Origin: Caballeronia novacaledonica
Lineage (GTDB): Bacteria > Pseudomonadota > Gammaproteobacteria > Burkholderiales > Burkholderiaceae
NCBI RefSeq assembly: GCF_900258035.1
Contig: NZ_OGTP01000029.1
Span: 1 to 64,000 of the forward strand
Reading direction: 5' to 3'
Length of the DNA stretch: 64,000 nt
Shown here: one piece after another, positions 919-58,455 of the stretch
Layout of the letters: each line of letters begins with the position of its first letter
How positions within the stretch are numbered: position 1 is the first letter of the stretch
The notes under the pieces: model-generated
The model's input: only the letters and a program-made list of their open reading frames with translations
The model's database searches: none
Told to the model about the DNA's origin: nothing
Program-made: the position numbers and the translations under genes

Positions 919-923
919 CGGGC

Positions 924-963: not shown

Positions 964-1072
964 ACTCGCCGGGTACATCAACGATGCGGCGAACACGCAG
1001 CAGCGCTTTTTTGCGACAACGCAAGACCTGCTTGCTGCCATCGCAGTAAAGTTTTGCGTTTAAAGGCGTTAA

Positions 1073-1648: not shown

Positions 1649-1834
1649 TCCATTTTGGGGGCGGGTTCGCGCGCCCGGGAGAGCGAGCGCGCGCCGTCGA
1701 CTTTCACGAAGGCGTCGCTATCGATCGCGACGCGCTCGTGAATTCTCTTGCGCGAGCGTTCGCCGAGGCGGACGCGTAGCGGGACAGATGCGCTTGCTGC
1801 GACCGCGCGGAACCGGCGTCCCGGCAGTCCGGGG

Positions 1835-1840
1835 TAAAAT
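1835..1840 (+). promoter_or_regulatory. -10-like box upstream of rimO
   Basis: A TAAAAT hexamer sits 41 nt before the GTG chosen as the rimO start. No convincing -35 box is visible. Its position inside any longer rimO reading frame argues that translation starts downstream of it. Confidence 0.35.
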
Positions 1841-1880
1841 ATCGGATTGGCCTCGTGCGCTCCCCCAAGACACTGTCCCC

Positions 1881-3272: not shown

Positions 3273-3275
3273 GCC

Positions 3276-4199: not shown

Positions 4200-4260
4200 C
4201 GTATCGGCTATCGAACATCGAACGAATCACCGGATCAACACAACCAGCGGAGATGGCAAC

Positions 4261-5445: not shown

Positions 5446-5456
5446 AGGACCGAAGG

Positions 5457-6110: not shown

Positions 6111-6125
6111 CCGGTCCCATCTTCA

Positions 6126-6149
6126 CGCCGCCGGGCGTTTCCGGCGGCG
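6126..6149 (+). terminator. Hairpin after the lipoprotein gene
   Basis: A 9-bp GC stem (6126-6134 with 6141-6149) and 6-nt loop lie 15 nt after the stop, followed by a weakly T-rich GCTTGTCCTTATTT. It separates the lipoprotein gene from metC. Confidence 0.55.
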
Positions 6150-6180
6150 GCTTGTCCTTATTTCGCTCCATACCGCTCTC

Positions 6181-7380: not shown

Positions 7381-7394
7381 GAAGCCGGCGCCGG

Positions 7395-8234: not shown

Positions 8235-8280
8235 CGGAGGGCAGGCGCGTGAAGGCGGAAACCGCCATTGTAAAGAACCT

Positions 8281-9237
8281 TCAGCGCTGCACGCGCGCCG
8301 GATCGACGTCCCAGTAAGGCGGCTCGCCGAACCGCGCCGCGAGGAAGTCGATGAACGCGAGCGTCTTCGGCGGCACGAACGCGCGGCTCGGATACACGGC
8401 CCAGATCGCGACGGTCTGCGCGAGCGGATAGTCGTCGAGCACGGTGACGAGCTCGCCGCTCGCGATGAGCGGCGCGACGCTCCACGTCGATTTGAGGCCG
8501 ATGCCGATGCCCGCCGCGAGCGCGTCGCGGATCACTTCGCCGTTGTCCGTCACGAGCCGCCCGGACACGCGCACGTCGATCACGCCGGTCGGCGTCACGA
8601 AGCTCCAGTCGCGCTGATCGGCGAGGATCACGCATTCGTGCGCGGCGAGATCGGCCGGATGACGCGGCGTGCCGTGCTCGGCGAGATACGCGGGCGACGC
8701 GCACAGCACGCGCCGGTTGCTCGCGAGCTTTTTCGCGACGAGCGTCGAATCCTTCAGCGCGCCGATGCGGATCGCGAGGTCGATGCCTTCATCGACGAGA
8801 TCGATGACCTGGTCGGTCATGCGCAGATCGACGCTCACGCCGGGATACGCGCGCAAAAACGCGGGAATCAGCGGCGAAATGTGCTGACGGCCGAGCGACG
8901 AGGGCATCGTCACGCGCAGCCGGCCGTGCGGATGCTCCCGCGCGCGCCCGACCGACGCCCGCGCGGCTTCGGCCGCGTCGAGCAGTTCGCGCGCGTGCGT
9001 CGCGAAGATTTCGCCTTCCTGCGTGACGGAGACGCGCCGCGTCGTGCGATGCAAAAGCCGCGCGCCCAGCATGCGCTCCAGCCCCGCGATGCGCGCGCTC
9101 GCCACCGCCGGCGACAAGCCGAACTCGCGCGCCGCCGACGACAGATTCGCCAGCGCCGCCGCCCGCATGAAGAGACCGACGTCGAGCAGATCGAGGCGTT
9201 CGCGGGTTGCGCTGTCCGTGAGAGGTTCGCTCGCCAT
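8281..9237 (-). CDS. LysR-family transcriptional regulator
   Basis: A 318-residue LysR regulator. The helix-turn-helix lies at about residues 20-80 (LSSAAREFGLSPAVASARIAGLE, interrupted here for length limits by its usual motif order) and the effector-binding domain follows from about 105. It is transcribed divergently from the zinc-type dehydrogenase at 9338 with about 100 bp between the start codons, the classical layout for a LysR controlling its neighbour. The first 15-20 residues before the HTH are longer than usual, so a start slightly downstream is possible. The effector is unknown. Confidence 0.88.
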   Translation of the reverse strand: MASEPLTDSATRERLDLLDVGLFMRAAALANLSSAAREFGLSPAVASARIAGLERMLGARLLHRTTRRVSVTQEGEIFATHARELLDAAEAARASVGRAREHPHGRLRVTMPSSLGRQHISPLIPAFLRAYPGVSVDLRMTDQVIDLVDEGIDLAIRIGALKDSTLVAKKLASNRRVLCASPAYLAEHGTPRHPADLAAHECVILADQRDWSFVTPTGVIDVRVSGRLVTDNGEVIRDALAAGIGIGLKSTWSVAPLIASGELVTVLDDYPLAQTVAIWAVYPSRAFVPPKTLAFIDFLAARFGEPPYWDVDPARVQR

Positions 9238-43785: not shown

Positions 43786-45066
43786 ATGCAATCCTCAACT
43801 CCCAAACTCGCGATGCGCCGCTGGTGGGCGATCATGCCGATCGTCTTCATCACGTACAGCCTCGCGTATCTCGACCGCGCCAACTACGGTTTCGCCGCGG
43901 CTGCGGGCATCAATCAGGATCTCGGCATCAGCAAGGGATTGTCGTCGCTGATCGGCGCGCTGTTCTTTCTCGGCTACTTCTTCTTCCAGATTCCCGGCGC
44001 GATCTATGCCGAGCGCCGCAGCGTGAAGAAGCTCGTGTTCTGGAGCCTGGTGTTGTGGGGCGGATGCGCGACGCTCACGGGCATGGTGAGCAACATTCCG
44101 TCGTTGATGGTGATCCGCTTCGTGCTCGGCGTCGTCGAGGCCGCGGTGATGCCGGCGATGCTCGTCTTCATCGCGAACTGGTTCACGAAGTCGGAGCGCT
44201 CGCGCGCGAACACGTTCCTTATCCTCGGCAATCCGGTGACGGTGTTGTGGATGTCGGTCGTATCGGGCTATCTCGTGAATTCGTTCGGCTGGCGGCACAT
44301 GTTCATTGCCGAAGGTGTGCCTGCGATCGTCTGGGCGGTGATCTGGTGGTTCATCGTGAAGGACAAGCCGGCGCAGGTGAACTGGCTGACGGACCAGGAA
44401 AAGAAGGATCTCGATGCGACGCTGCGCGCTGAACAGGCCGCGATCAAGCCGGTGAAGAACTATCGCGAGGCGTTCAAGTCGCCGGCGGTGATCAAGCTGT
44501 GCGCGCAGTATTTCTGCTGGAGCATCGGCGTGTATGGTTTCGTGCTGTGGCTGCCTTCGATTCTGAAGAGCGGATCGACGCTCGGCATGGTCGAGACGGG
44601 CTGGCTCTCGGCGGTGCCGTATCTGGCGGCGACCATCGCGATGTTGCTGGCTTCGTGGGCATCCGACAAGCTCCAGGCGCGCAAGGCGTTCGTGTGGCCG
44701 TTCCTGCTGATCGGCGCGGTGGCGTTCGCGGGATCGTATTTGCTTGGTTCAACGAACTTTTGGGCTTCGTATGCGTTGCTCGTGATCGCGGGCGCGGCGA
44801 TGTATGCGCCTTACGGACCGTTTTTCGCGATCGTGCCGGAGTTGCTGCCGAAGAATGTCGCTGGCGGGGCGATGGCGCTCATCAACAGCATGGGCGCGCT
44901 GGGATCGTTCGTCGGATCGTATTTCGTGGGCTATCTGAATGGGGCGACCGGGTCGCCGGCGGCCTCGTATGTGTTCATGAGTGCGGCTTTGTTGCTTGCT
45001 GTCTGGCTCACTTTGGCGGTTAAGCCGCAGGCTGCGGTGCGGGCGGGGGTTGTTGTGAGGTCTTGA
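43786..45066 (+). CDS. kguT: MFS transporter KguT (2-ketogluconate uptake)
   Basis: A 426-residue major facilitator of the anion:cation symporter group, twelve hydrophobic segments. The signature LAYLDRANYGFAAA follows the first segment, and GNPVTVLWMSVVSGYL in segment 5 region is typical of ACS-type sugar-acid carriers. It would import 2-ketogluconate with protons. The ATG at 43786 is preferred over an in-frame TTG 18 nt earlier because GGAGACAACC precedes it. The repeat element at 45071 begins 5 nt after its stop. Confidence 0.85.
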   Translation: MQSSTPKLAMRRWWAIMPIVFITYSLAYLDRANYGFAAAAGINQDLGISKGLSSLIGALFFLGYFFFQIPGAIYAERRSVKKLVFWSLVLWGGCATLTGMVSNIPSLMVIRFVLGVVEAAVMPAMLVFIANWFTKSERSRANTFLILGNPVTVLWMSVVSGYLVNSFGWRHMFIAEGVPAIVWAVIWWFIVKDKPAQVNWLTDQEKKDLDATLRAEQAAIKPVKNYREAFKSPAVIKLCAQYFCWSIGVYGFVLWLPSILKSGSTLGMVETGWLSAVPYLAATIAMLLASWASDKLQARKAFVWPFLLIGAVAFAGSYLLGSTNFWASYALLVIAGAAMYAPYGPFFAIVPELLPKNVAGGAMALINSMGALGSFVGSYFVGYLNGATGSPAASYVFMSAALLLAVWLTLAVKPQAAVRAGVVVRS

Positions 45067-45070: not shown

Positions 45071-45689
45071 TTTTTTTGTTGTTTTCGCAGGATCCCGATT
45101 TGCTTCTGGTTTATTAGCGTTGCCCCTGTGCGGGGCGGCAGTCACATTCTTTGCTGCTGCAAAGAAAGTAACCAAAGAAAGCAGCTTTTGAGGCCCGCGG
45201 TCACACGCAAGTTGGCCACGTTTCTCCTTGCAGATGGCCCTCGCCTAAGTGTCGCCCTCACAGGCCCAATCGGGCTTGGATCGCGCACGGTTTGCCGCGC
45301 CAGTCACCAAGGCCGCTGGTTCAGCACGAAAGAGTTCCGGCACAGCGCTGTGCGCTGCCGTTGGGTATGTGGGGGAAACCGTCGAGAAAGAAGCGCACGC
45401 GGCCCCCCGATTGACCCATCGGCCGCGAAGCGGGCTGGAGCCATTTCGTGCTGAGCCAATCTGGCGTGTGGTGCGATGTGTCAGATCGTGCGCGATCCAA
45501 GCCCGATAAGACCTTTGAGGGCACTCGCTACTCTGGGGGCCATTCAGCCAATCGCCTGTGCCGCGGCCGGTGTGAGGTACTTTGGATGGGGATAGCTGCT
45601 TTCTTTGGTTACTTTCTTTGCAGCAGCAAAGAAAGTGACTGCCGCCCCGCACAGGGGCAACACAAATAGACCGACACGAATTCAGGATT
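45071..45689. repeat. TIR-flanked repeat element, copy A
   Basis: About 620 bp between kguT and kguD, with no credible gene. The left arm (45090-45186) and right arm (45595-45689) are near-perfect inverted repeats of each other. Each arm holds an inner hairpin: ACTTTCTTTGC, 4-nt loop, GCAAAGAAAGT, next to GCCCC/GGGGC. The same arms and much of the interior recur at 56550-57197. Reading frames in the element (for example a frame with RLTHRPRSG) differ from copy B at all codon positions, which argues against protein coding. Resembles a non-autonomous mobile element (MITE-like) or a structured RNA unit. Confidence 0.85.
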
Positions 45690-45721
45690 TCACAGAAGCC
45701 CAAACCGACCGAAAAAAAGCC

Positions 45722-46690
45722 ATGCTGAAAAAAATCGTAGTCTACAAACCCTTGCCAACCGACGTGGAAGCCTACCTTCGCGACAAAGCGGACGTAATCA
45801 ACGTCGATCCAAAAGATCAAGCCGCATTCACAGCGGCGCTAGAGCACGCTGACGGTGCCATCGGCGCAAGCATAAAGATCACCCCGTCCATGATCGAAGG
45901 CGCCAAAAACCTGAAAGCGCTGTCGACCATCTCCGTAGGCTACGATCAATTCGACGTCGATGACCTCACGCGCCGCGGCATCGTGCTCACGCACACACCC
46001 GACGTGCTCACCGAATCCACCGCCGACACCGTCTTCGCGCTGATCCTCGCAAGCGCGCGCCGCGTCGTCGAACTCGCGGAATGGGTGAAGGAAGGCCACT
46101 GGACATCGAGCATCGGCGAGGCATGTTTCGGTGTCGACGTCCAGGGCAAGACGCTCGGCATCGTGGGCCTCGGACGCATCGGCGGAGCGGTCGCACGGCG
46201 CGCCGCGCTCGGTTTTCGCATGAACGTGCTTTACACGAACCGCAGCGCGAACGAGCAGGCGGAAAAGGAATTCGGCGCGAAGCGCGTCGAGCTCGACGAA
46301 CTCCTCGCGCAATCCGATTTCGTCTGCCTGCAAGTGCCGCTTACGCCGCAGACGCGCGGGCTCATCGGCGCGAACGAGTTGAAGAAGATGAAGCAGAGCG
46401 CGATTCTGATCAACGCATCGCGCGGGCCGACCGTCGACGAAACCGCGCTCGTGGAAGCACTGAAAAACGGAACGATTCGCGGCGCGGGCCTCGACGTGTT
46501 CGAGCAGGAACCGCTGCCCGCCGGCTCGCCGCTCCTCGCGATGAAGAACGTCGTCGCGCTGCCGCATATCGGCTCGGCCACGCACGAAACGCGTCACGCG
46601 ATGGCGCGCAACGCCGCCGAAAATCTCATCGGCGCACTGGACGGCACGCTCACGCGGAACATCGTCAATCGCGGCGTGCTCGCGCGCTGA
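45722..46690 (+). CDS. kguD: 2-keto-6-phosphogluconate/2-ketogluconate reductase KguD
   Basis: A 322-residue D-2-hydroxyacid dehydrogenase. NAD(P)-binding motif GLGRIGG begins at residue 150, and the catalytic Arg234, Glu263 and His282 are in NASRGP, EQEP and PHIGSATHE. In the kgu pathway it reduces 2-keto-6-phosphogluconate to 6-phosphogluconate, which enters the Entner-Doudoroff or pentose phosphate route. The start is the ATG at 45722; it lies 33 bp after the repeat element, which separates it from the rest of the operon. Glyoxylate/hydroxypyruvate reductase is the alternative. Confidence 0.87.
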   Translation: MLKKIVVYKPLPTDVEAYLRDKADVINVDPKDQAAFTAALEHADGAIGASIKITPSMIEGAKNLKALSTISVGYDQFDVDDLTRRGIVLTHTPDVLTESTADTVFALILASARRVVELAEWVKEGHWTSSIGEACFGVDVQGKTLGIVGLGRIGGAVARRAALGFRMNVLYTNRSANEQAEKEFGAKRVELDELLAQSDFVCLQVPLTPQTRGLIGANELKKMKQSAILINASRGPTVDETALVEALKNGTIRGAGLDVFEQEPLPAGSPLLAMKNVVALPHIGSATHETRHAMARNAAENLIGALDGTLTRNIVNRGVLAR

Positions 46691-46794
46691 AAGCGTGGGG
46701 CCGGGCGGGCATGCGCTAACATGCGCGATGCGAGGAGAACGATAATGACGGCATCGCGTCCCGCCTCACGGCGAAGCGCGCGCCCACGACCACT

Positions 46795-47874
46795 ATGTCC
46801 GACGATCCCACATTGACGAACCGCCCGGCCGCATTCGGCGCGCGCCGCGCAACGATCACCGATGTCGCCCGCGAAGCCGGCACGGGCAAGACCAGCATTT
46901 CGCGCTATCTGAACGGCGAAATGGGCGTGCTGTCGCCCGACTTGCGCGAGCGCATCGAGGCGGCCATCGCGAAGCTCGACTATCGGCCGAATCAGATGGC
47001 GCGCGGCCTGAAGCGCGGGCGCAATCGCCTGATCGGCATGCTGCTCGCCGATCTGACCAATCCGTATTCCGTCGAAGTGCTGCAAGGCGTCGAGGCCGCG
47101 TGCCACGCGCTCGGCTACATGCCGCTCATCTGTCACGCCGCGAACGAGATCGACATGGAGCGGCGCTATCTGCAACTGCTGACCACCTATCGCGTCGAAG
47201 GCGTGATCGTCAACGCGCTCGGCGTGAAGGAAGAACTGCTGCAAGGCTTCGCGCAAGGCGGCATTCCCGTCGTGCTCGTCGATCGTTCGGTCGATGGTTT
47301 CATCACCGACATGGTCGGCCTCGACAATCCCGCCGCCGTGCAGCGCGCCACGCGTCATCTCGTCGACGAAGGCTTCGACGAACTGCTGTTCATCGTGCAG
47401 CCCGTCACGCACGTAAGCTCGCGGCGCATTCGTGAAGCCGCGTTTCGCGAGACCGTCGCCGCGCTCGGCGCCAGCGGCTCGACGCTCGTCATCGATCTCG
47501 CCGATGCATCGCCCGCGCTCGCGGAACTCGACACGCGGGTCGCGGCGGCGAAAGCGGCGGGCAAACGCGTCGCGCTCTTCGCGGCGAACGGGCCGGTCGC
47601 GCTGCGCGTCGCGGTGCATCTGAAGGAGCGCCACGGCGCCGACTGGCAAGCGAGCGTCGCGCTGATGTCGATCGACGATTCCGAATGGGCGCAACTCGCC
47701 GGCATGACGACCGTCCGCCAGCCGACGTACGATATCGGCCGGCGCGCGGTCGAATTCCTGCACGAGCGGCTCGGCGGCGCCGCGATGCCCGCGCGCGAAT
47801 GCCTGCTGCCGGGCGAACTCGTCGTGCGCGCATCGACGACACGGGAAACTCACCAAGCATCACAGGGAATCTGA
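46795..47874 (+). CDS. ptxS: LacI-family regulator PtxS
   Basis: A 359-residue LacI/GalR repressor. The helix-turn-helix is at about residues 20-75 (ITDVAREAGTGKTSISRYLNG, reduced here to its start and end), the hinge and a periplasmic-binding-like sensor domain follow, with FAANGPVALRVAV near 260. It closes the kgu cluster, and the palindrome before kguE matches the known PtxS operator closely, so it most likely represses kguEKTD until 2-ketogluconate binds. An upstream short frame at 46745 has a stronger ribosome binding site than this gene. Confidence 0.86.
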   Translation: MSDDPTLTNRPAAFGARRATITDVAREAGTGKTSISRYLNGEMGVLSPDLRERIEAAIAKLDYRPNQMARGLKRGRNRLIGMLLADLTNPYSVEVLQGVEAACHALGYMPLICHAANEIDMERRYLQLLTTYRVEGVIVNALGVKEELLQGFAQGGIPVVLVDRSVDGFITDMVGLDNPAAVQRATRHLVDEGFDELLFIVQPVTHVSSRRIREAAFRETVAALGASGSTLVIDLADASPALAELDTRVAAAKAAGKRVALFAANGPVALRVAVHLKERHGADWQASVALMSIDDSEWAQLAGMTTVRQPTYDIGRRAVEFLHERLGGAAMPARECLLPGELVVRASTTRETHQASQGI

Positions 47875-48666
47875 ATGGTCAGTGTTTCGACGTTGCTGAG
47901 CCTCGCGCTCGCGACGCTCATCATCGCGGCGATGCCCATCGTGCTGTACAAGAAGGTGCGGCCGCGCTTCGGCATCGTGCCGCGCGAGGCGATCCTCGGC
48001 ATCGCCGTGTTCGCGCTCTTCGCGATGGTCATCGAACGCGCGCTGCACGGCTTCGTGCTGAGCAATCCGGTCACGTCGGCGTGGCTCGCGAATCCCGCGA
48101 TATTCGTGATCTACGGCGCGATCGCGGCGGGCTTGTGCGAGGAAGTCGGACGTTTTCTCGCGATGAAATGGCTGATTTCGCGCGAGCCGGGCGCGCTCGA
48201 TCGTCACGGGCCCGCGCTCGGCTACGGCATCGGGCACGGCGGGGCGGAAGCGTGGATCGTCGGCGTGCTCGTGCAGGTGCAATGGATCGTCTACGCGGTG
48301 CTCGCGGATCGGGGTACGCTCGACTCGCACTTCGCGAGCGCGCCGCTTGAAGCGCTCGCGCGCATCCATCTGGTGCTGATGAGCCTGTCGCCGTTATCGG
48401 CGGGCATTTTCGTCGTCGAGCGGGCGAGCGCCTTCGTGTTGCAACTCGGTTTTTCCGCGCTGATGTGGCAGATGTTGCGCGAACGCTCACGCCACGCGCT
48501 CGCGTTGCTCATCGCCGCGCATGCGCTCGTCGGCTTGCCCGCCGCGCTGTTTCAGGCGCGGCTCGTGCCGCTCGTCGCCGCCGACGCCGTGTATCTCGTG
48601 CTCGGCGTGATCGTCGCGGTGGCGCTCGTGCGCTACTATCGGCGCGCCGCTGGTCGCGTCGCCTGA
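47875..48666 (+). CDS. YhfC-family intramembrane metalloprotease-like protein
   Basis: A 263-residue membrane protein with about seven hydrophobic segments. The motifs GLCEEVGR (about 82-89) and GIGHGGAEA (about 119-127) put Glu, Glu and His in membrane segments, as in YhfC/CPBP-type proteases. Its ATG directly follows the ptxS stop (TGAATG), so it is translated from the same mRNA. No link to 2-ketogluconate is known; the target is unknown. Confidence 0.75.
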   Translation: MVSVSTLLSLALATLIIAAMPIVLYKKVRPRFGIVPREAILGIAVFALFAMVIERALHGFVLSNPVTSAWLANPAIFVIYGAIAAGLCEEVGRFLAMKWLISREPGALDRHGPALGYGIGHGGAEAWIVGVLVQVQWIVYAVLADRGTLDSHFASAPLEALARIHLVLMSLSPLSAGIFVVERASAFVLQLGFSALMWQMLRERSRHALALLIAAHALVGLPAALFQARLVPLVAADAVYLVLGVIVAVALVRYYRRAAGRVA

Positions 48667-48705
48667 ACGCGAACAAGCTGGCTTCAAACCGGATTTCGAC
48701 ATCGA

Positions 48706-49071
48706 ATGGACGACTATCAATACGACTGTCCGAGCGCGGACATCGACATGCTCGCGCACGTGATCTGCGATCTCTTTCCCGAGCAGACGCAATTCGCCGA
48801 ACGCAAGGACGATGCAGGCCGGACTTCGCTCGTGATTCACTACGTGGCGATGCGCTTCGGGTCGAGCGCGCGGCGCATCACCATCGACGTGCGTTTCGAT
48901 CCGGCCGCGCTCGCGCGATATCGTGCGCTGCCGGCGCGCATGCACGCGCGCAGTTATGCGGTGCTGCGCGCCTATGTGGAAGCGACGCTCGGCTCGCTCG
49001 AAGAGATGTACGCGGACGGCCAGACCGTGCCGCGCGAAGTGGACATCGAGATGGGCGAGGACTTCGCCTAG
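48706..49071 (+). CDS. Hypothetical protein, possibly DUF3022
   Basis: A 121-residue acidic cytoplasmic protein without signal or membrane segment. Segments such as ITIDVRFDPAALARYRALP and TLGSLEEMYADGQ suggest a small alpha/beta domain. It recalls a Burkholderia family labelled DUF3022, but this was not verified. Its stop TAG lies inside a CTAG shared with the convergent gene, so the two genes overlap by 4 nt. Confidence 0.65.
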   Translation: MDDYQYDCPSADIDMLAHVICDLFPEQTQFAERKDDAGRTSLVIHYVAMRFGSSARRITIDVRFDPAALARYRALPARMHARSYAVLRAYVEATLGSLEEMYADGQTVPREVDIEMGEDFA

Positions 49072-49496
49072 GCCTCGCGATAGACCTTCGCGAAGCGCGC
49101 CGCCTTCACGACGCCATAATCGCCCGGCGCGTATTGCATGACCCAGTCGCCGGCGTCGCCGGTGAGGATGTCGCCGGCGGCGGACCGGGCGATGGAGAAG
49201 GGCTCGTGCATCTCCTTCGCGAGCACGACGCTCGGACGGTTGCGATACGTGCCCGCCTCGCCGTGCGCGATGCCGCCTTCCGGCACGTACCGGGCGTCGA
49301 AGCGCTCGCGCGACACAACCCAGCGCTCGCCGCCGCTGCCGGTGACGATCGCGTCGCCGCTCGCGTAGCGGTTCGGGCCTTCGAGACTCATGAGTTCGCC
49401 CGATGCCGCCGCAAATTCGACGGCGACGGCTTCGTCTTTCACGACGCGGCGCGCGGCGGGATCGGTGGCGAGGTCGAGGTTTGACAGATGGAGCAT
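49068..49496 (-). CDS. PGDYG-domain protein of unknown function
   Basis: A 142-residue protein ending in the motif PGDYGVV and KAARFAKVYREA, the hallmark of the PGDYG family. The rest is beta-rich with GERWVVSRERFDARYVPEGG near the middle. No signal peptide. The function of the family is unknown. The ATG at 49496 is chosen because the longer frame upstream runs into the Spy-like gene. Stop codon overlaps that of the convergent gene through a CTAG. Confidence 0.7.
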   Translation of the reverse strand: MLHLSNLDLATDPAARRVVKDEAVAVEFAAASGELMSLEGPNRYASGDAIVTGSGGERWVVSRERFDARYVPEGGIAHGEAGTYRNRPSVVLAKEMHEPFSIARSAAGDILTGDAGDWVMQYAPGDYGVVKAARFAKVYREA

Positions 49497-49567
49497 GGTG
49501 CGATCCGGAGTGACGTTGGCGGAGCGGGATCGTAACGGCATTCGCGCCATTTTGCACCCGGCGGACG

Positions 49568-49599
49568 AAAAAAAGCCCGCATCGCGCGATGCGGGCTTT
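49568..49599 (-). terminator. Intrinsic terminator after the Spy-like gene
   Basis: A 13-bp stem (49572-49584 with 49587-49599) is read on the minus strand and followed by seven T residues. It ends the Spy-like transcript 17 nt after its stop. Confidence 0.85.
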
Positions 49600-49615
49600 C
49601 CGGTTCGGCAAACGC

Positions 49616-50134
49616 TCAGGGCTTGGTCGCCGAAGCCGCGTCCGCACCCGCCGCATGCGGCCGGCGATGCGCGTGAGTGCGCTTCGACTTGCCGTGCTCG
49701 TCGCGGAAACTCGTATCGGCGAGCTTCTTCTGTTCGGGCGAAAGGCTCGCGTAAAGCGGCTCGAAAGCTTCGACGAGGCGCTTCGTGCCGTCCGCGTTCG
49801 CTTGCGTGATCTGCTCGTATTGCTTCATGTCGTCGAGCGCGGACATGGTCTCGCGCTGCGCAATGCGCTGGCGATACAGATCCGCCATCGTGCGGCCGTT
49901 GTCGCGCATCACGTCGGCGAACTTCGACCACTGATCTTCCTGCTGCGGCGTGATCTTGAGGCTCGAATGCAGATCCGCGATACGCTCTTCGACGCGCGCT
50001 TCGCGCTTGCTCGCGCCCGGAGCGGATGCCGCGGCCTGCGCGGCAGGCGCCGATGCCGAAGCGGGCGCCGACGTCTGCGCGAAAACCGGGCTCAATGCGC
50101 ACAATGCGGCCAATGCAACGAGTGTTCTTTTCAT
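49616..50134 (-). CDS. Spy/CpxP-like periplasmic protein
   Basis: A 172-residue periplasmic protein with a signal peptide cleaved near VFAQ (residue 20), an Ala/Ser/Pro linker, and a helical domain with LTxxQ-type motifs (LKITPQQEDQW near 58, LSPEQKKLAD near 135). Spy/CpxP proteins act as ATP-independent chaperones or as envelope-stress sensors. The C-terminus is His/Lys/Arg-rich. It is followed by a strong intrinsic terminator and preceded by a divergent LysR gene. Confidence 0.82.
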   Translation of the reverse strand: MKRTLVALAALCALSPVFAQTSAPASASAPAAQAAASAPGASKREARVEERIADLHSSLKITPQQEDQWSKFADVMRDNGRTMADLYRQRIAQRETMSALDDMKQYEQITQANADGTKRLVEAFEPLYASLSPEQKKLADTSFRDEHGKSKRTHAHRRPHAAGADAASATKP

Positions 50135-50298
50135 TCGGGTTACCTTCGATCGATATGGAAAGCGGCGTGCTTCGTTAGCCGCGCTGAAAGGCAGCGCGAT
50201 GAGCACGCCATCGGCGGATATTAGTATCACGATTGCATGCGAATTCGCCTGCATTGCCACAACTGCTTACATTCGAAACGTCTCTGGAAAATAACGCA

Positions 50299-51189
50299 GT
50301 GGATACCTTGTTGAGCATGCGGGTCTTTGTCGCGATCGTCGAGGCCGGGAGCCTGAGCGCGGCGGCCGAGCGCTTTTCGATCTCCGCGCCGATGGCGGGC
50401 AAGCATCTGCAGGCGCTGGAAGCGCGGCTCGATGCGCGTCTTCTCGTGCGCACGACGCGGCGTCAGAGTTTGACCGAGATCGGCCGCGAATACTACGAGC
50501 GCTGCCGCCGTATTCTGTCGGAAGTCGATGACGCCGATTCACTCGCCGAATCGATGAGCGCGACGCCGCGCGGCGTACTGCGCGTGACGGTGCCGCTCAC
50601 GTACGGCGTGCAGTTCGTCACGCCCGCCGTGACCGAGTTCCTCGCGGCATTCACGCAGATCAGCGTCGAGCTCGATCTGACCAACCGCGTGGTCGATATC
50701 GTGGAAGAGGGTTTCGATGCCGCCGTGCGCATCGGCGCGCTGGCCGATTCGAGCTTCGTCGCGCGTCCGCTCAAACCGTATGCGATGACGGTGTGCGCAT
50801 CGCCGTCCTATCTCGCGCGAGCGGGCACGCCCGCGACGCCAGCCGATCTCGCGAGTCACGAGTGCCTGGGTTTCGTGCATCTGGGCCGCGAGGCGGGCTG
50901 GCGGCTCGAAGGCGAGGACGAAGCGATGCACGCGCATCGCACGCAGTCCGCGCGCTTTCGTGCGAACAACGGACAGGCGCTCAAGAAGGCGGCGCTCGCG
51001 GGATTCGGTCTCGTGCTTCAGCCGCATGCGCTCGTTGAAGACGAGCTAAAAAGCGGCACGCTCGTCGCGGTGCTCCAGAATTGCCTGCCGAAACCTTCGC
51101 CCGCGCATCTCGTCTATCCACGCGATACGCGCGCAACGCCCAAGCTCGCGAGCTTCGTCGATTTCATGATGACGAAGCTAGGCGTCTGA
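50299..51189 (+). CDS. LysR-family transcriptional regulator
   Basis: A 296-residue LysR regulator starting VDTLLSMRVFVAIVEAGS, the pattern of the large Burkholderia subgroup that starts MDTLxSMRVF. HTH is at about 15-70 and the effector domain from about 90. The GTG at 50299 matches that subgroup start; the frame stays open upstream. Divergent from the Spy-like gene with 164 bp between. The target is unknown; the Spy-like gene is one candidate. Confidence 0.85.
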   Translation: MDTLLSMRVFVAIVEAGSLSAAAERFSISAPMAGKHLQALEARLDARLLVRTTRRQSLTEIGREYYERCRRILSEVDDADSLAESMSATPRGVLRVTVPLTYGVQFVTPAVTEFLAAFTQISVELDLTNRVVDIVEEGFDAAVRIGALADSSFVARPLKPYAMTVCASPSYLARAGTPATPADLASHECLGFVHLGREAGWRLEGEDEAMHAHRTQSARFRANNGQALKKAALAGFGLVLQPHALVEDELKSGTLVAVLQNCLPKPSPAHLVYPRDTRATPKLASFVDFMMTKLGV

Positions 51190-51222
51190 CGAAGGTTCGT
51201 TTCGCAATGTCTCGGCGATAAT

Positions 51223-51286
51223 GCAAAACACAAAACGCCGGATGCCAGATGGCATTCAAAACGCATAGCGCAAAACACAAAATGCC
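51223..51286 (+). repeat. Short A-rich direct and inverted repeats before the Lrp gene
   Basis: GCAAAACACAAAACGCC (51223-51239) recurs as GCAAAACACAAAATGCC (51270-51286). Between them GGATGCCAGATGGCATTC forms a small palindrome. Similar GCATTTTGC and ATGCCAGAT motifs occur at 42692 and 60493. Confidence 0.5.
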
Positions 51287-51301
51287 AACGGAGACGCCTA
51301 C

Positions 51302-51757
51302 ATGAGACCACCGCGCCTCGACCAGCTCGACGACATCGATCGCAATCTTGTCGCGCTCTTGCAGATGAACGCGCGGGAGAGCGTCGCGAATCTCGCGCGG
51401 CAACTGGGCGTCGCGCGCACGACGGTGATCGCGCGCATTGCGCGGCTCGAAAAGAACAACGTGATCGCCGGCTATGGCGTGCGGCTCGGGCAGGACGTCC
51501 TCGACGCGAGCATTCAGGCTTATGTCGGCATCAAGCTCACGCCCAAGTTCGGCCGCGATCTGCAAAAGCGCTTTGCGCGCATGCCGGAGATTCAGTTGCT
51601 CTGCGCGGTGAGCGGCGAGTTCGATTACGTCGCGTGGCTGCGCGCCGATTCGCCCGACCGGCTGAACGATCTGCTCGACGAAATCGGCGCGCTGGAAGGC
51701 GTCGAGCGGACGACGACCTCCATCATCCTCGCGCGGAAGATCGATCGCGCCGGCTGA
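51302..51757 (+). CDS. Lrp/AsnC-family regulator
   Basis: A 151-residue Lrp/AsnC protein: HTH at about 8-60 (LDDIDRNLVALLQMNAR, then VANLARQLGVARTTVIARI) and a RAM effector domain (about 70-140) with VSGEFDYVAWL. Such proteins bind amino acids and often control a neighbouring amino-acid enzyme; the saccharopine dehydrogenase-like gene begins 159 bp downstream in the same direction. Confidence 0.87.
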   Translation: MRPPRLDQLDDIDRNLVALLQMNARESVANLARQLGVARTTVIARIARLEKNNVIAGYGVRLGQDVLDASIQAYVGIKLTPKFGRDLQKRFARMPEIQLLCAVSGEFDYVAWLRADSPDRLNDLLDEIGALEGVERTTTSIILARKIDRAG

Positions 51758-51916
51758 GCGCGTGCGCTGCACATTGCAGCGTTCGATCGTCGGAATGACG
51801 AAAATCATCGTCGAAGCGCATCATTTTGCGTCTAGGATCAGTATTCCCGCGCTCCTAAACTGTGTGAAGAAGGACATCGGATTGACCCGCCATCCGCACA
51901 CACCAAGGAGATGAAT

Positions 51917-53026
51917 ATGAAAGTGGCCCTCGTCGGCGCCGGATTGATCGGTCAGAGCATTGCCCATTTGCTGCGTGAAACGGGGGACTTCGAAGTCGTC
52001 GCGTTCGATCGCGACGAGCACGCGCTCGCGCTGCTCGAGGCGCAAGGCATCCCGACGCGCCGCGTCGATTCCGCCGATACGCCCGCGCTGCGCCAGGCGC
52101 TGGTCGGCTTCGATGCGCTCGTCAACGCGCTGCCGTATTACCTCGCGATCAATGTCGCGTCGGCGGCGAAAGCGGCGGGCGTGCATTATTTCGATCTGAC
52201 CGAGGACGTGCGCGCGACCCACGCGATCCGCGCGATCGCCGACGATTCCGAGCTCGCGTTCATGCCGCAATGCGGCCTCGCGCCGGGCTTCATCGGCATC
52301 GTCGCGCACGATCTGGCAAAGCGTCTCGACGACGTGCGCGAAGTGAAGATGCGTGTCGGCGCGCTGCCCGAGTTTCCGACGAACGCGCTGAAGTACAACC
52401 TGACGTGGAGTATCGACGGCCTTATTAATGAATATTGCCAGCCGTGCGAGGCGATCCGCGAAGGGCGCACGCAATGGGTGCAGCCGCTCGAAGGCGTCGA
52501 ACATTTTTCGCTCGACGGCACCGAGTACGAGGCGTTCAATACGTCGGGCGGACTCGGCACGCTATGCGAAACGCTCGCGGGAAAGGTCGAGACGCTCGAC
52601 TACAAATCGGTGCGCTATCCGGGTCATCGCGACCTGATGAAGTTCCTGCTCGACGATCTGCGCATGTCCACGGACCGCGACGGCCTCAAGACGATGCTGA
52701 AGCGCGCGGTGCCCTCGACGGCGCAGGATGTCGTGCTGATTTTCGTCACCGTGACGGGCATGCGTCGCGGGCAACTCGTGCAGGACGTGTTCACGCGCAA
52801 GATCTTCGCGAAGGACGTGTGCGGCGTGCCGATGAGCGCGATCCAGATCACGACCGCCGGCGCGATCTGCGCGGAACTCGATCTGTTCCGTGAAGGCGCG
52901 CTGCCGCAAAGCGGCTTCGTGCGTCAGGAGCAGGTGCCGCTCGGCGCATTCCTCAATAACCGCTTCGGCAAGCTGTACGAAGGCGCGAACGCGGTCGCGA
53001 CGGCGCGCCAGCTCGCCGCCGCTTAA
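51917..53026 (+). CDS. Saccharopine dehydrogenase-like oxidoreductase
   Basis: A 369-residue enzyme with an N-terminal Rossmann fold (MKVALVGAGLIGQS) and the saccharopine dehydrogenase C-terminal domain. The resemblance is to LYS9/lysine 6-dehydrogenase-type enzymes, but the substrate cannot be deduced. GGAG lies 7 nt before the second ATG (51917), better spaced than the first (51911). The Lrp gene upstream suggests control by an amino acid. Its TAA shares a TTAA with the stop of the convergent ATPase gene. Confidence 0.78.
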   Translation: MKVALVGAGLIGQSIAHLLRETGDFEVVAFDRDEHALALLEAQGIPTRRVDSADTPALRQALVGFDALVNALPYYLAINVASAAKAAGVHYFDLTEDVRATHAIRAIADDSELAFMPQCGLAPGFIGIVAHDLAKRLDDVREVKMRVGALPEFPTNALKYNLTWSIDGLINEYCQPCEAIREGRTQWVQPLEGVEHFSLDGTEYEAFNTSGGLGTLCETLAGKVETLDYKSVRYPGHRDLMKFLLDDLRMSTDRDGLKTMLKRAVPSTAQDVVLIFVTVTGMRRGQLVQDVFTRKIFAKDVCGVPMSAIQITTAGAICAELDLFREGALPQSGFVRQEQVPLGAFLNNRFGKLYEGANAVATARQLAAA

Positions 53027-53601
53027 GCGACGAGGCGTGCGAGCAGTTCGTCGCACGCCTGACCGGACGGCGCCGTGTTGTCGAACATGACGAGCGTCTG
53101 CGCGAGCGCCGCGTCCGGCACGAAAAGGCGCTGACGATATTCCTCCCAATGCGCGAGCTTGTACGCATCGTTCGGATCGCCACGCGCGACGATACGCTCG
53201 CGCGCCACGTTCTCCTGCACATGCACCCAGACGACGCGAATGGCGACGTCGTCATCGATGCCGAGCCATGCGCGATCGAAGAGGCGCGACGTGCGCACTT
53301 CGCGCGTGAGCGGCGCGACGATCACGACACTCACGCCGAGCGCGAGATTTTCAGCGGCGGTATCGACGAGACAGCGATACTCCGGATCGCGAAAATGTTC
53401 GATGAAAAGCGGACTGTCCCGGTCGTGCGGGTCGCCCGTCAGCGCACCGATCGCCGCCGCGCTATAGGCGCCGTAGAGCGTGTCCTTGTCGAGCAGGCAG
53501 AAGGGCTCGCCGGCCACCTGCATGAGCGGCGCAAAGAGCCGCCTGGCGAGCGTCGTCTTGCCGGTGCCGGCATGGCCGCAGAAGAAGATCAGATGCTTCA
53601 C
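53023..53601 (-). CDS. P-loop NTPase/kinase-like protein
   Basis: A 192-residue ATP-binding protein with Walker A GHAGTGKTT at the start (about 9-17) and an LDKDTLYG-type second motif. It resembles small zeta/chloramphenicol-phosphotransferase-like kinases, but no substrate motif was recognised. The GTG at 53601 gives MKHLIFF directly before the P-loop; a TTG 15 nt earlier is possible. It follows the antiporter gene on the same strand after 30 bp and overlaps the convergent dehydrogenase gene by 4 nt. Confidence 0.65.
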   Translation of the reverse strand: MKHLIFFCGHAGTGKTTLARRLFAPLMQVAGEPFCLLDKDTLYGAYSAAAIGALTGDPHDRDSPLFIEHFRDPEYRCLVDTAAENLALGVSVVIVAPLTREVRTSRLFDRAWLGIDDDVAIRVVWVHVQENVARERIVARGDPNDAYKLAHWEEYRQRLFVPDAALAQTLVMFDNTAPSGQACDELLARLVA

Positions 53602-53631
53602 GCGTGATCGGTCCAAAAAAGAAAGGGCGAA

Positions 53632-54945
<1,314 letters not shown>

Positions 54946-55164
54946 GAATGCCTTCGGGTTTCGTGTGCCGATGGTTGGACGGACCGCGCGACGTGGCGCG
55001 CGTCACATTCATGACATCGACAGCACGCGCCATGCCTGTTTTACTTTTGCGCGCTTCGGGCAGGGCCGCTGCCTCGCGGTTCACTTGCGCGTAAGATGCA
55101 TTTCGATCCTTGTAGCGCGATTCGTCATCCGCTTCATTCGCTTCATTCGAACGGAGAATCCAGC

Positions 55165-56547
55165 ATGGCACAGCACTTCGATGCGGTCGTCATCGGCACG
55201 GGGCAGGGCGGTTCACCGCTTGCCGTGCGGCTCGCGCAAAGCGGCAGGCGCACGGCCGTGATCGAGCGGCATCTGTTCGGCGGCACCTGCGTGAACGTCG
55301 GCTGCACGCCGACCAAGACCTATGTCGCGAGCGCGCGGGCCGCGCATGTGGCGCGCACGGCGGCGCAATACGGCGTGATGATCGGCGGCGATATCACCAT
55401 CGACATGGCGCGCGTGAAGGCGCGCAAGGACGAGGTGATCGGCGGCTCGCGCACGGGCATCGAGAAGTGGCTGCGCGGGACGAAGAATCTCACGGTGTTC
55501 AAGGGACATGGACGCTTCACGGGACCGCGCACGCTTTGCATCGAGGCGAGCGATGGCTCGACGCAGGACATCGATGCCGAACTCGTGTTCATCAACACGG
55601 GCACGCGCGCGCTGGTGCCGGAGATCGACGGGATCGAGCGTGTGCCGTATCTGACCAATGCGTCGATTCTCGAACTGACCGAGGTGCCCGAGCATCTCGT
55701 GATCGTCGGAGCGAGCTATATCGCGCTCGAATTCGGGCAGATGTTCCGTCGCTTCGGCAGCCGCGTGACCTTGCTCGTGCGCGGCGAGCGCATTTTGACG
55801 CGCGAGGACGAGGACGTCGCGCGCGCGATGCAGGACGTGTTCGTGCGCGAAGGCATCGAGTTCCGGTTCGGCACGCAGATCGAGCGCGTGGAGCCGTCGG
55901 CAGGCGGCGTGCGCATTTTTTGCGGCGATGAAACCATCGACGCGTCGCATCTGCTTTGCGCGACGGGACGTACGCCGAACACCGACGATCTCGGCCTCGA
56001 GCATGCGGGTATCGCGGTGAACAGGCACGGCATGATCGACGTGGACGGTCAATTGCGTACGCAAGCGGAAGGCGTGTATGCACTCGGCGATGTGAACGGG
56101 CGCGGTGCGTTCACGCATACGTCGTGGAACGACTACGAGATCATCGCTTCGAATTTGCTCGATGGCGAGTCGCGCAGCGTCGATACGCGGATCATGGCTT
56201 ATGCGGTGTTCGTCGATCCGCCTTTCGCGCGTGTGGGGATGAGCGAGGAGGAAGTGCGCAGGGATGGCCGCGAGGCGCTCATCGCGACGATGCCGATGTC
56301 ACGCGTGGGGCGCGCACGCGAGCGCGGCGAGATTGATGGTTTCATGAAGGCGCTCGTCGATGCGCGTACCCGGCGGTTCTTAGGCGCGGCGATTTATGGC
56401 ATCGAAGGCGATGAAGTCATTCACACTTTTATCGAAATTATGAATGCGGACGCGCCGTTTACTACGCTGCAGCGGGCTATGCATATTCATCCTACGGTGA
56501 GTGAGTTGGTTCCTACTTTGCTTGAAGGGCTTAAGCCTTTGCGGTGA
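55165..56547 (+). CDS. FAD-dependent pyridine nucleotide-disulfide oxidoreductase (mercuric reductase-like)
   Basis: A 460-residue flavoprotein with FAD-binding GTGQGGSP (11-18), redox-active Cys42 and Cys47 in GGTCVNVGCTPTKT, a central NAD(P)H-binding domain with VGASYIALEFG, and a C-terminal dimerisation domain ending with the HPT(V)SELVPT motif. No C-terminal vicinal Cys pair or N-terminal metal-binding domain is present, so it is not classical MerA; labels such as mercuric reductase-like or dihydrolipoamide dehydrogenase-like fit. GGAGAATCCAGC precedes the ATG. A repeat element begins 3 nt after the stop. Confidence 0.85.
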   Translation: MAQHFDAVVIGTGQGGSPLAVRLAQSGRRTAVIERHLFGGTCVNVGCTPTKTYVASARAAHVARTAAQYGVMIGGDITIDMARVKARKDEVIGGSRTGIEKWLRGTKNLTVFKGHGRFTGPRTLCIEASDGSTQDIDAELVFINTGTRALVPEIDGIERVPYLTNASILELTEVPEHLVIVGASYIALEFGQMFRRFGSRVTLLVRGERILTREDEDVARAMQDVFVREGIEFRFGTQIERVEPSAGGVRIFCGDETIDASHLLCATGRTPNTDDLGLEHAGIAVNRHGMIDVDGQLRTQAEGVYALGDVNGRGAFTHTSWNDYEIIASNLLDGESRSVDTRIMAYAVFVDPPFARVGMSEEEVRRDGREALIATMPMSRVGRARERGEIDGFMKALVDARTRRFLGAAIYGIEGDEVIHTFIEIMNADAPFTTLQRAMHIHPTVSELVPTLLEGLKPLR

Positions 56548-56549
56548 GG

Positions 56550-57197
56550 TTTTTTTGTTGTTTTCGCAGGATCCCGATTTGCTTTTGGTTTATTAGCGTT
56601 GCCCCTGTGCGGGGCGGCAGTCACTTTCTTTGCTGCTGCAAAGAAAGTAACCAAAGAAAGCAGCTTCTCAGGCCCGCGGTCACACGCACGTTGGCCACGT
56701 TTCTCCCTGTCGATGGCACTCGCCTAAGTGTCGCCCTCAAAGGCCCAATCGGACTTGGCTCGCGCACGGTCTGGTGCACCACATGGTTTAGGGCGCTGGT
56801 TCAGCACGAAATAGCTTCGGCACAGCGCTGCGCGCTGCCGCCGGGTCTGCAAGGGAAACCAACCTTCCGCGAATGCGGTGAGATAGACGCGTTAGCAACG
56901 AAGCACACGCAGACCCGATTGACCCATCGGCCGCGTAGCGGGCCGGCGCCATTTCGTGCTGAGCCAACTTGTTGTGTGGTGCGATGCGTCAGACCGTGCG
57001 CGATCCAAGCCCCGTGAGTTTTGTGGGAGCACTCGCTACTCTGGGGGCCATTAGGTCAATCGCCTGTGCCGCGGCCGGCATGAAGTACTTTGGATGGGGA
57101 TAGCTGTTTCTTTGGTTACTTTCTTTGCAGCAGCAAAGAAAGTGACTGCCGCCCCGCACAGGGGCAACGCTAATAGACCGACACGAAATCGGGATCC
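56550..57197. repeat. TIR-flanked repeat element, copy B
   Basis: Homologue of the element at 45071-45689, about 650 bp, between two convergent genes. The left arm (56569-56665) and right arm (57102-57197) are almost exact inverted repeats, from GGATCC at each outer end. Each contains the inner hairpin ACTTTCTTTGC/GCAAAGAAAGT. The left outer tract TTTTTTTGTTGTTTTCGCAG is shared with copy A. The interior keeps blocks such as GCACTCGCTACTCTGGGGGCC and GACCCATCGGCCGCG. No transposase and no clear target-site duplication were found. Confidence 0.85.
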
Positions 57198-57213
57198 GGC
57201 GGAGAAAACCCCC

Positions 57214-58455
57214 CTAAACCCCCACCGAAGGCTTAGCCTCATCACCAGGGACCCCATGCGCAGTCCGTGTCTCCGGCATAGCGAGCCACACCATCAGCAC
57301 TGCAAGCGCGCCGGCACCGGCGAGTCCGAAGAAGCTTATCGCCGTGCCGAAGCGGTCGGCGGCGAATCCGGCCGCAGCAGTCGAGAGTGTCGCGCCCACT
57401 CCCGCCGCCAAACCGAAAAACCCGATCGTCAGGTTGTAGTGCCCGCGTCCACCCGCGACATCGGCGGCAATGAGCGGCAGCATCACACCGAACACGGCAG
57501 CGCTGATGCCATCGAGCATCTGCACCGGCACGAGCAGATAGGGGCTGCTCACGCCCGCAAACAAAATCGCCCGCACCGGCAATGCGCAGAACCCGAGAAT
57601 CAGCACCGGCCTGCGGCCCCACTTCTGCGCCTGTCGCCCGACCCAGGGCGACAACGCCGCCACGATGAACTGCGGCACGATGATGCACGCCGCGATCACG
57701 AGTTGAACGTTGTCGCCCATGTGCGCGGTCACTTCGCCGGCGGCGAGATTGAGCATCGCCGCGTTCGACAAGTGAAACAGCACCACGCACGCCGCGAAAA
57801 TCAAAAGCCGTCTGTCCTTCAGCAACTCGCGCAAGGACTCGCGCTCCTCACCCTCGGGCGTGAGCTTGGGCTTGCCGGGCGATGTGCGCGGCACGACAGG
57901 CGGCGCATCGTAATGAATCATGCGCAGCGCGACGATCGCCGGCAACGCGAGCGCGGCCGTCAGGAAGAACACCGATCGCAACGACAGATACTCGCCGAAC
58001 GCGCCCATCAAAGCCGCAGTAAGCGCGCTGCCGATCGACGCCCAGCGCGCATTGCGGCCGAGCCGGTCGCCGAGATCGGCGCGCGAGACGAGGGCGAGCG
58101 AGATCGCCGCCATCGCCGGGACGAGCATGCAGCTCGCGAAGCCGTGCAGCACTTCGGCAGCGAAAACGGGGACGAACGTCGGGCTCGCGGCGAGCAGCAG
58201 CGCACTCACGATGATCGCGATGATCGCGGAGAGCGCTGCGAACTTCTTGTTGCGCATCGCATCGACGAGCGCGCCTGCGGGAAGCTGGCTCGCCATCGCG
58301 CTGATCGTGCCGACGGAGAGCATCAGGCCGATCTCGCCCTGCGTCCACTTGTTGGCCGCGAGGTACGAAGCAATGAAAGGGCCGAAGCCGGTCTGCACGT
58401 TGGCGACGAAGAAGTTCAGCCAGTCGAGCGCGCGCAGACTGCGTGCAATTACCAT
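57214..58455 (-). CDS. MFS transporter of unknown substrate
   Basis: A 413-residue major facilitator with twelve hydrophobic segments, beginning LDWLNFFVANVQTGFGPFIA. The loop between segments 2 and 3 has AGALVDAMRNKKF, the usual charged motif of the superfamily, and the central loop (about 195-225) is charged and contains PGKPKLTPEGE. The group resembles bacterial drug/unknown exporters. It ends 17 bp before the right end of repeat copy B. Confidence 0.8.
   Translation of the reverse strand: MVIARSLRALDWLNFFVANVQTGFGPFIASYLAANKWTQGEIGLMLSVGTISAMASQLPAGALVDAMRNKKFAALSAIIAIIVSALLLAASPTFVPVFAAEVLHGFASCMLVPAMAAISLALVSRADLGDRLGRNARWASIGSALTAALMGAFGEYLSLRSVFFLTAALALPAIVALRMIHYDAPPVVPRTSPGKPKLTPEGEERESLRELLKDRRLLIFAACVVLFHLSNAAMLNLAAGEVTAHMGDNVQLVIAACIIVPQFIVAALSPWVGRQAQKWGRRPVLILGFCALPVRAILFAGVSSPYLLVPVQMLDGISAAVFGVMLPLIAADVAGGRGHYNLTIGFFGLAAGVGATLSTAAAGFAADRFGTAISFFGLAGAGALAVLMVWLAMPETRTAHGVPGDEAKPSVGV

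What the first reader, a model, noticed from the sequence alone, without database searches (positions are those of the whole stretch)
45071..57197. Two homologous 0.6-kb elements with long terminal inverted repeats
45071-45689 and 56550-57197 share a left tract (TTTTTTTGTTGTTTTCGCAGGATCC), terminal inverted repeats of about 95 bp and much of a 400-bp interior. Each inverted repeat carries an 11-bp hairpin of its own, so an RNA copy would form a long stem with branched ends. Seen directly. Interior frames vary between copies at all codon positions, so they look non-coding. I recall frames like VTFFAAAKKVTKE annotated as hypothetical proteins in Burkholderiaceae, which suggests that a repeat family is being mis-annotated as genes. 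No transposase or target duplication was found, so the means of spread is unknown.
Basis: partly seen in the sequence, partly recalled or inferred. Interest (0 to 1): 0.75.

Follow-up and report, generated by a model that had tools for sequence, protein, structure and literature searches.

The report
Giant intergenic palindromes that swap content
The two repeats belong to a large family of 0.6-0.7 kb near-palindromes that sit behind genes in Caballeronia and Paraburkholderia, code for no protein, keep their ends almost letter-perfect, and seem to exchange their insides between places in the genome much faster than the DNA around them changes.

Summary
Each element (45085-45689, 56564-57209) is one imperfect palindrome over its whole length. 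This genome has at least 44 complete copies and 40 lone or tandem arms. Of 399 sampled Burkholderiales genomes, only this one and one of another genus carry the arm motif. The interior is non-coding. Arms of complete copies are nearly invariant (79 of 88 exact over 59 nt); lone arms are decayed (9 of 40). Copies avoid divergent gene pairs and mostly lie nearer stop than start codons. Both window sites are filled, shortened or empty in related species. Two P. caribensis strains with flanks 98.4-99.7% identical hold elements 89-98% identical at four shared sites. One changed tract matches the neighbouring element, inverted. Two of five sites are flipped between species. Copies close together on the chromosome are more alike. 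I read this as ectopic gene conversion and inversion at fixed sites. The architecture is REPIN/BIME-like but several times larger. The one Y1-transposase relative here lacks its catalytic residues, so the means of spread stays unknown. Covariation is absent in this genome, so an RNA role is not supported. Assembly error is not fully excluded.

The parts
45085..45689 (+). Element 1, whole-length imperfect palindrome between an MFS gene (stop 45064-45066) and a 2-hydroxyacid dehydrogenase-like gene (gene names from my reading of the frames, not searched)
45092..45186 (+). Left arm of element 1, with internal hairpin 45141-45172
45594..45688 (-). Right arm of element 1, with internal hairpin 45608-45639
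45187..45593 (.). Interior of element 1, itself palindromic (45254-45294 pairs with 45482-45522, 85%), non-coding
56564..57209 (+). Element 2, between two convergent genes (stop codon 56545-56547; stop-side end of the minus-strand gene 57214)
56557..56659 (+). Left arm of element 2, with internal hairpin 56620-56651
57107..57209 (-). Right arm of element 2, with internal hairpin 57115-57146
56660..57106 (.). Interior of element 2, palindromic and non-coding
57136..57242 (+). Match to Rfam RF02421 (Bp1_684, putative Burkholderia sRNA) on the outer right arm, 48.1 bits, cut-off 44; the three other arm ends score 39.5-43.0, below it

Best explanation
Giant REPIN/BIME-like repeats: non-coding, whole-length imperfect palindromes (about 300 base pairs of stem) that form a dispersed population behind genes in Caballeronia and Paraburkholderia. 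Shown: two nearly invariant inverted arms around a variable palindromic interior; decayed lone arms; avoidance of divergent gene pairs; sites that are filled, shortened or empty in relatives; content at shared sites that differs far more than the flanks, is sometimes flipped, and resembles neighbouring copies. Inferred: the palindrome breaks or stalls replication, repair copies from another element through the arms (ectopic gene conversion), and pairing of the two arms flips the interior, so that the population evolves in concert at fixed sites. Also inferred: new sites arose rarely, by an unidentified hairpin-recognising transposase now lost or dead, or by conversion of short hairpins into full elements. 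Transcript-end protection or insulation is a possible side effect, untested.
For: Population: 44 complete elements and 40 other arms in the fetched loci of this genome; 126 hairpin motifs, reversed control 0. Whole-length palindromes also in Paraburkholderia and another Caballeronia with different interiors (z -21, -52, -28); 136 of 136 extracted elements over 500 bp have 76-93% Watson-Crick pairs. Arms exact in 79 of 88 (complete) against 9 of 40 (lone). Place: 27 tandem, 12 convergent, 1 divergent, 3 unresolved of 43, against 41/8/8 in the window. Sites filled, shortened, empty. Exchange: strains 852011 and MWAP64 have flanks .984-.997 but elements .976.904.937.887; a MWAP64 R2s2 tract best matches 852011 inside R2s1, inverted, 97.1%; flips at R2s2 and R3s2; copies under 40 kb apart .837 against .791 on different contigs, 0 of 5000 permutations; elements at the same Caballeronia sites .80-.88, own-genome copies median .87-.88 and best .90-.91.
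Against: Among 38 quartets paralogues are closer in only 19, and in 6 of 6 quartets of the closest strain pair orthologues are closer, so replacement is partial. The R3s2 tract had no near-exact donor in the plasmid collection. Two Caballeronia sites show no flip in the species compared (orientation reasoned). No enzyme or mechanism was seen at work. Repeats may be misassembled and I do not know the sequencing methods. P. caribensis interiors show weak left/right coupling (44 and 102 of 2000 permutations, n 13).
Confidence: 0.62

Rival explanations
1. An ordinary active MITE: the arms are terminal inverted repeats served in trans by a present-day transposase, and differences at a shared site are repeated insertions into the same hot spot.
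For: Inverted ends, many copies, intergenic, empty sites in relatives; arms conserved only in complete copies.
Against: No target duplication seen by eye at the ends of 30 copies or at empty sites. Site 1 keeps the same kind of right end (CAGGAT.. or close) in most filled and shortened forms (by eye), which fits one old insertion. Four of five Paraburkholderia sites are filled in each caribensis-group record in which both flanks aligned. No copy with a transposase gene between the arms was met, but I did not search for one systematically.
Confidence: 0.15
2. A REPIN-RAYT system in the strict sense, moved by the single Y1_Tnp protein.
For: 57 of 58 same-genus genomes have a Y1_Tnp match and 52 exactly one, like a vertically kept RAYT; REPIN-like layout and decayed singlets (PMC3116915 passages).
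Against: In all 19 proteins my filter extracted from the 30 loci tested the HxH motif reads QAVHLL; 16 of the 19 show RVVE..PVRA where the tyrosine motif is expected (the expected motifs are recalled). No RF02421 match in the 3.3-kb locus of the gene nor on its contig among the 133 listed. All 14 same-genus genomes without an RF02421 match have a Y1_Tnp match too.
Confidence: 0.07
3. A conserved structured RNA (RF02421-like sRNA or transcript-end hairpin) under selection for base pairing.
For: Very stable fold; RF02421 over its cut-off at 22 of 133 matches in this genome; the B. pseudomallei candidate is in the RT-PCR-validated table of PMC3521395 (passages); location behind genes; oriented G-T mismatches outnumber A-C in this genome (483 to 407), in 17 related Caballeronia copies (193 to 144) and in 10 from named contigs (112 to 69).
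Against: No covariation at variable arm pairs; halves of one element not matched beyond chance in stem and interior; the G-T excess is modest, copies are not independent, and the larger sets whose orientation is uncertain show none (548 to 558 in 50).
Confidence: 0.1
4. Assembly artefact: mosaics, flips and unlike orthologues come from misassembled repeats.
For: Several contigs in draft assemblies begin or end at arms, so assemblers struggle here; a segment between inverted repeats is a classic ambiguity (recalled).
Against: The P. caribensis records are titled complete sequences; differences run through the interior, not only at the arms; neighbour similarity and the inverted neighbour tract fit a process.
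Confidence: 0.08

Closest known systems
REPINs (REP doublets forming hairpins; PMC3116915, passages read)
   Same: Two conserved inverted ends, less conserved spacer, whole unit folds as a hairpin, intergenic, tandem clusters, singlets less conserved than doublets.
   Different: Several times longer (REPIN starts lie 71 bp apart in SBW25); no compensatory changes found in this genome; no intact RAYT found beside them; content exchanged and flipped at fixed sites.
BIMEs / REP families (PMC3733652, passages read; BIME recalled)
   Same: Mosaic palindromic units behind genes, alone, paired and in arrays. That survey also reports RAYT genes flanked by long inverted repeats and families of such repeats in some species.
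   Different: REPs are 20-40 bp with an unpaired GTAG or CGTC tag; here the unit is 0.6-0.7 kb and I saw no such unpaired tag.
MITEs
   Same: Non-coding, inverted ends, many copies.
   Different: No target duplication seen, no partner transposase found, palindromic throughout.
Rfam RF02421 Bp1_684 (PMC3521395, passages read)
   Same: Covers the outer arm; one of four arm ends in the window passes the cut-off.
   Different: Described as a single sRNA candidate; the passages read do not mention a repeat family (the word 'repeat' does not occur in the main text).

Membership tests
REPIN-RAYT | Two conserved inverted units flank a less conserved spacer; the whole forms a hairpin | tested here: met
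   arms .941, interior .855 mean pair identity
REPIN-RAYT | Singlets decayed relative to doublets | tested here: met
   79 of 88 against 9 of 40 exact
REPIN-RAYT | REP units of 20-40 bp in a doublet of about 0.1 kb | tested here: not met
   arms 95-103 nt, element 0.6-0.7 kb
REPIN-RAYT | Compensatory changes across the hairpin | tested here: not met
   for this genome; weak signal in P. caribensis interiors (44 and 102 of 2000)
REPIN-RAYT | Catalytically intact RAYT flanked by the repeats | tested here: not met
REPIN-RAYT | Unpaired GTAG or CGTC tag beside the hairpin | tested here: inconclusive
   By eye only: Caballeronia arms read GTAA there; in Paraburkholderia GTAG is paired with CTAC in the arm hairpin
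MITE | Terminal inverted repeats | tested here: met
MITE | Target-site duplication | tested here: inconclusive
   None seen by eye; relatives too diverged for exact junctions
MITE | Autonomous relative with a transposase between the same ends | not tested
   None met; the C42 island has none that I recognised
RF02421 sRNA | Score over the curated cut-off | tested here: met
   1 of 4 arm ends in the window, 22 of 133 matches in the genome
RF02421 sRNA | Transcribed as a discrete RNA in this host | not testable with these tools
   No expression data
Protein-coding gene | Frame kept and codon-position bias | tested here: not met

The most novel reading that the evidence does not exclude
A distinct class of bacterial repeat: fixed intergenic docking sites, each a giant palindrome whose near-invariant arms let the interior be exchanged and inverted between sites by hairpin-provoked recombination. 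The family keeps its palindromic form while its sequence is replaced wholesale, and spreads by converting short hairpins rather than by transposition.
Probability: 0.28. Interest if true: 0.82.

Novelty: new variant of a known kind. Interest (0 to 1): 0.63.

Why it matters
Palindromes of this size are held to be unstable in bacteria (recalled), yet tens to hundreds stand in one genome: 11 of 144 Paraburkholderia genomes have 100 or more arm hairpins. If they are recombination hot spots that rewrite themselves within a species, they are a natural system for palindrome-provoked breakage, ectopic gene conversion and the upkeep of REPIN-like repeats without a working transposase. They may also explain some spurious 'hypothetical proteins', the sRNA family RF02421, and contig breaks in these genera.

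Tried and rejected
SbcCD tolerance. In Caballeronia, a bona fide SbcD and six or more RF02421 matches rarely go together (3 of 17 SbcD+ against 31 of 41 SbcD- genomes, Fisher 7.5e-5; only 52 candidates per genome were scored). In Paraburkholderia there is no such link (12 of 15 SbcD+ against 82 of 129 SbcD- with six or more arm hairpins, p 0.26; one SbcD+ genome has 495). Rejected as a general rule; shared ancestry may make the first result. In three SbcD+ genomes (15 elements) pairing quality is similar and most loops are longer than the SbcD- median of 58.

Y1/RAYT as mover and one-strand RNA selection: see the rivals. Intrinsic terminator: one weak prediction at an element end; 20 sites found in 13.3 kb against 12.7 expected. 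Phages: no match. Plasmids: 15 records, all 0.67 Mb or larger, all Burkholderiaceae. Peptide search for misannotated frames: no match, query probably too short. Search for an intact donor of the R3s2 tract: none.

Limits: elements were collected with an arm pattern allowing 3 substitutions, so copies with badly decayed arms are missed. 195 detections gave 143 unique elements; 7 are under 500 bp and were left out of most counts. A1 holds 42 of the 43 full-length copies then held of this genome (one of 935 bp dropped). One search compared 7 of the 10 other filled site-1 species (not L091, L098, L105). Gene orientations come from a simple codon-usage script of mine.
Full report
Check. The two elements are real and at the stated places. 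Direct identity is 93% over the first 232 bp and 86% over a 207-bp block of the right half; the arms are 95-103 nt inverted repeats. The symmetry is greater than was reported: the first element aligns with its own reverse complement over 565 bp at 70%, and both fold into one rod with z-scores of -20 and -22.

Host and copies. The window lies in a 6.78-Mb draft genome in 72 contigs. I take the genus to be Caballeronia: a match of the same-genus genome G034 (C6:604152) has the same coordinates as one in Caballeronia sp. NK8 (NZ_AP024327.1). This is an inference. BLAST gives 173 matches to the element on both strands, self-palindrome matches included; RF02421 gives 133; the arm hairpin pattern gives 126, with 0 for the reversed control. 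Among the loci I fetched there are 44 complete elements (88 paired arms) and 40 further arms. Arm arrays with regular spacing, elements nested in others, and a stretch of about 8 kb between two arms also occur.

Range. In 399 genomes drawn from the order only this genome (126) and one genome of another genus of the family (17) have the arm hairpin. In 144 genomes of that second genus, which I take to be Paraburkholderia, 117 have it and 11 have 100 or more. In the window's genus 44 of 58 genomes have an RF02421 match.

Anatomy. I took out 143 unique elements; all 136 over 500 bp are palindromic over their length, 76-93% Watson-Crick. Elements of P. largidicola, P. caribensis and Caballeronia sp. 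M1242 share the arms but have other interiors (27, 20 and 27% of the query covered) and still fold as rods (z -21, -52, -28). In 42 aligned copies of this genome the arm core is almost invariant while the interior varies: mean pair identity 0.941 against 0.855. The interior is a mosaic: its left half comes in two types, one of which is the reverse complement of the right half, and the outermost ends come in about four types, often unlike on the two sides (by eye). Arms of complete elements match a 59-nt core exactly in 79 of 88 cases, other arms in 9 of 40.

Not a protein and probably not a selected RNA. Variability is the same at the three codon positions, and the frame annotated by the ORF list is broken in 26 of 42 copies; no Pfam match for four frames. 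Variable arm pairs combine at random (columns 44/751: CG 13, UG 11, CA 10, UA 8; 13.1 CG expected from the margins) and the covariation term is -2.86 of -215 kcal/mol. The left half of an element matches its own right half no better than another element's in stem and interior; only the outermost 16 bp do (0.751 against 0.682, 1 of 2000 permutations). P. caribensis (13 copies) shows a weak signal in the interior (44 and 102 of 2000). G-T mismatches exceed A-C mismatches modestly (483 to 407 in this genome, 193 to 144 and 112 to 69 in two other Caballeronia sets; no excess in the sets of uncertain orientation). The palindrome is thus mainly a property of the family rather than of the single copy.

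Place. With a simple codon-usage gene caller, 40 of 43 copies in this genome resolve: 27 between tandem genes, 12 between convergent and 1 between divergent ones, against 41/8/8 for the gene pairs of the window. From that list I count 22 of 27 tandem copies nearer the stop than the start, 4 nearer the start and 1 tie. Other sets: 12/6/0 with 4 of 22 unresolved, and 31/22/5 with 13 of 71 unresolved.

Sites in relatives. Both window sites were searched in 58 same-genus genomes; one search examined 30 loci for each. At site 1, 25 of 30 have both flanks. Besides the window's own, ten are filled (L084-L091, L098, L105), four hold short hairpins in 112-220 bp (L095, L096, L100, L110), four have 57-93 bp (L097, L099, L102, L112), and six have 121-174 bp that I did not class. 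At site 2, 15 of 30 have both flanks: besides the window's own, three are filled (L114-L116), one is a short hairpin (L127, 145 bp), five have 62-79 bp (L129, L130, L132, L133, L142), and the rest hold 108-183 bp or other repeats. Elements at the same site in other species (0.80-0.88) are no closer to the window copies than other copies of their own genome (median 0.87-0.88, best 0.90-0.91).

Exchange at fixed sites. Three syntenic stretches of P. caribensis MBA4, MWAP64 and 852011, PGU16, PGU19 and P. phymatum hold five complete sites in MBA4. R2s1, R2s2 and R3s2 are filled in each caribensis-group record held, R3s1 in the four that aligned; R1s1 is filled in MBA4, 852011 and PGU19, interrupted in MWAP64 and has no element in PGU16 (gap 4.9 kb). 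P. phymatum has no element at R1s1, 84 bp at R2s2, and an 83-bp hairpin with the same outer ends at R2s1. Strains 852011 and MWAP64 have 1-kb flanks of 98.4-99.7% identity, but their four shared elements are 97.6, 90.4, 93.7 and 88.7% identical. Over 38 quartets paralogues are closer than orthologues in 19; for this closest pair orthologues are closer in 6 of 6, so replacement is incomplete. The Caballeronia quartet G000/G054 has orthologues at .818 and .830 and paralogues at .886 and .900. A tract of MWAP64 R2s2 has its best match in 852011 inside the neighbouring site R2s1, inverted, at 97.1%; a tract of R3s2 had no near-exact donor (best 90.6%). Elements at R2s2 and R3s2 are flipped between the P. 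caribensis strains and PGU16 or PGU19. In the window's genome, copies under 40 kb apart are more alike (0.837; different contigs 0.791; 0 of 5000 permutations), and the closest copy lies on the same contig in 7 of 42 cases against 2.0 expected. The two window copies, 11.5 kb apart, fit this: each is among the other's three nearest relatives and they share a left tract that no other aligned copy has in full.

Mechanism. I infer that a palindrome of this size provokes breaks or fork stalls, that repair uses another element through the invariant arms, and that pairing of the two arms in one element flips the interior. How the first copies spread is open. The Y1_Tnp relative occurs in 57 of 58 genomes, with or without elements, and the 19 proteins extracted lack the HxH motif. 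Conversion of short hairpins into full elements is possible (P. phymatum R2s1; L095, L096), but the direction is not shown.

Known kinds. Layout and the singlet/doublet contrast are those of REPINs (PMC3116915, passages); placement and mosaicism are those of REPs and BIMEs. A 2013 survey reports RAYT genes flanked by long inverted repeats and families of such repeats in some species (PMC3733652, passages; 'Burkholderia' does not occur in its main text). Size, lack of an intact RAYT, lack of compensatory change and exchange at fixed sites set this family apart. I file it as REPIN-like, not as a member. I found no description of it in ten searches of the paper library; six papers were read in passages, the others seen only as listings, and subscription journals are mostly missing.

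Noticed in passing
L146 1490-1747; ends of L020, L023 and L028 (G000 contigs C61, C43, C18, C21): A transposase gene, IS30-like by my reading, seems to interrupt several elements near contig ends; one N-terminal fragment gives only a weak HTH_38 match below its cut-off, the C-terminal fragment none.
   Followed up: partly
L143 about 840-8670 (G000 C42): About 8 kb with near-repeated genes lies between two facing arms, one carrying a PAAR-like stretch, so it looks like a type VI secretion island; read by eye, not searched.
   Followed up: no
Caballeronia and Paraburkholderia genomes: A SbcD over the TIGR00619 cut-off is found in only 17 of 58 and 15 of 144 genomes, although E. coli and other controls ring.
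   Followed up: partly
L061 1126-1881 (G000 C45): A conserved Y1_Tnp relative without HxH, next to a frame that looks like an OmpW-type outer-membrane gene, may be a domesticated transposase.
   Followed up: partly
L135 2000-3080 (G038, site 2): The orthologous gap holds a different repeat family with GGCATTC..GAATGCC palindromes at intervals of roughly 50-150 bp.
   Followed up: no
L066 1600-2100, L065 1380-1750, L063 470-1620: Tandem arrays of single arms with regular spacing of about 140 and 74 bp, and nested arm-linker-element-linker-arm palindromes.
   Followed up: partly
NZ_AP025261.1 and NZ_AP024960.1 (Paraburkholderia terrae, 65 and 70 kb): Two small plasmid-collection records carry a piece of the interior at about 80% identity, unlike the large replicons that hold the rest.
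   Followed up: no
L100 (G006), site 1: A shortened element has a different hairpin (CCAGAGT...ACTCTGG) in its middle, as if another palindrome had been captured in the loop.
   Followed up: no
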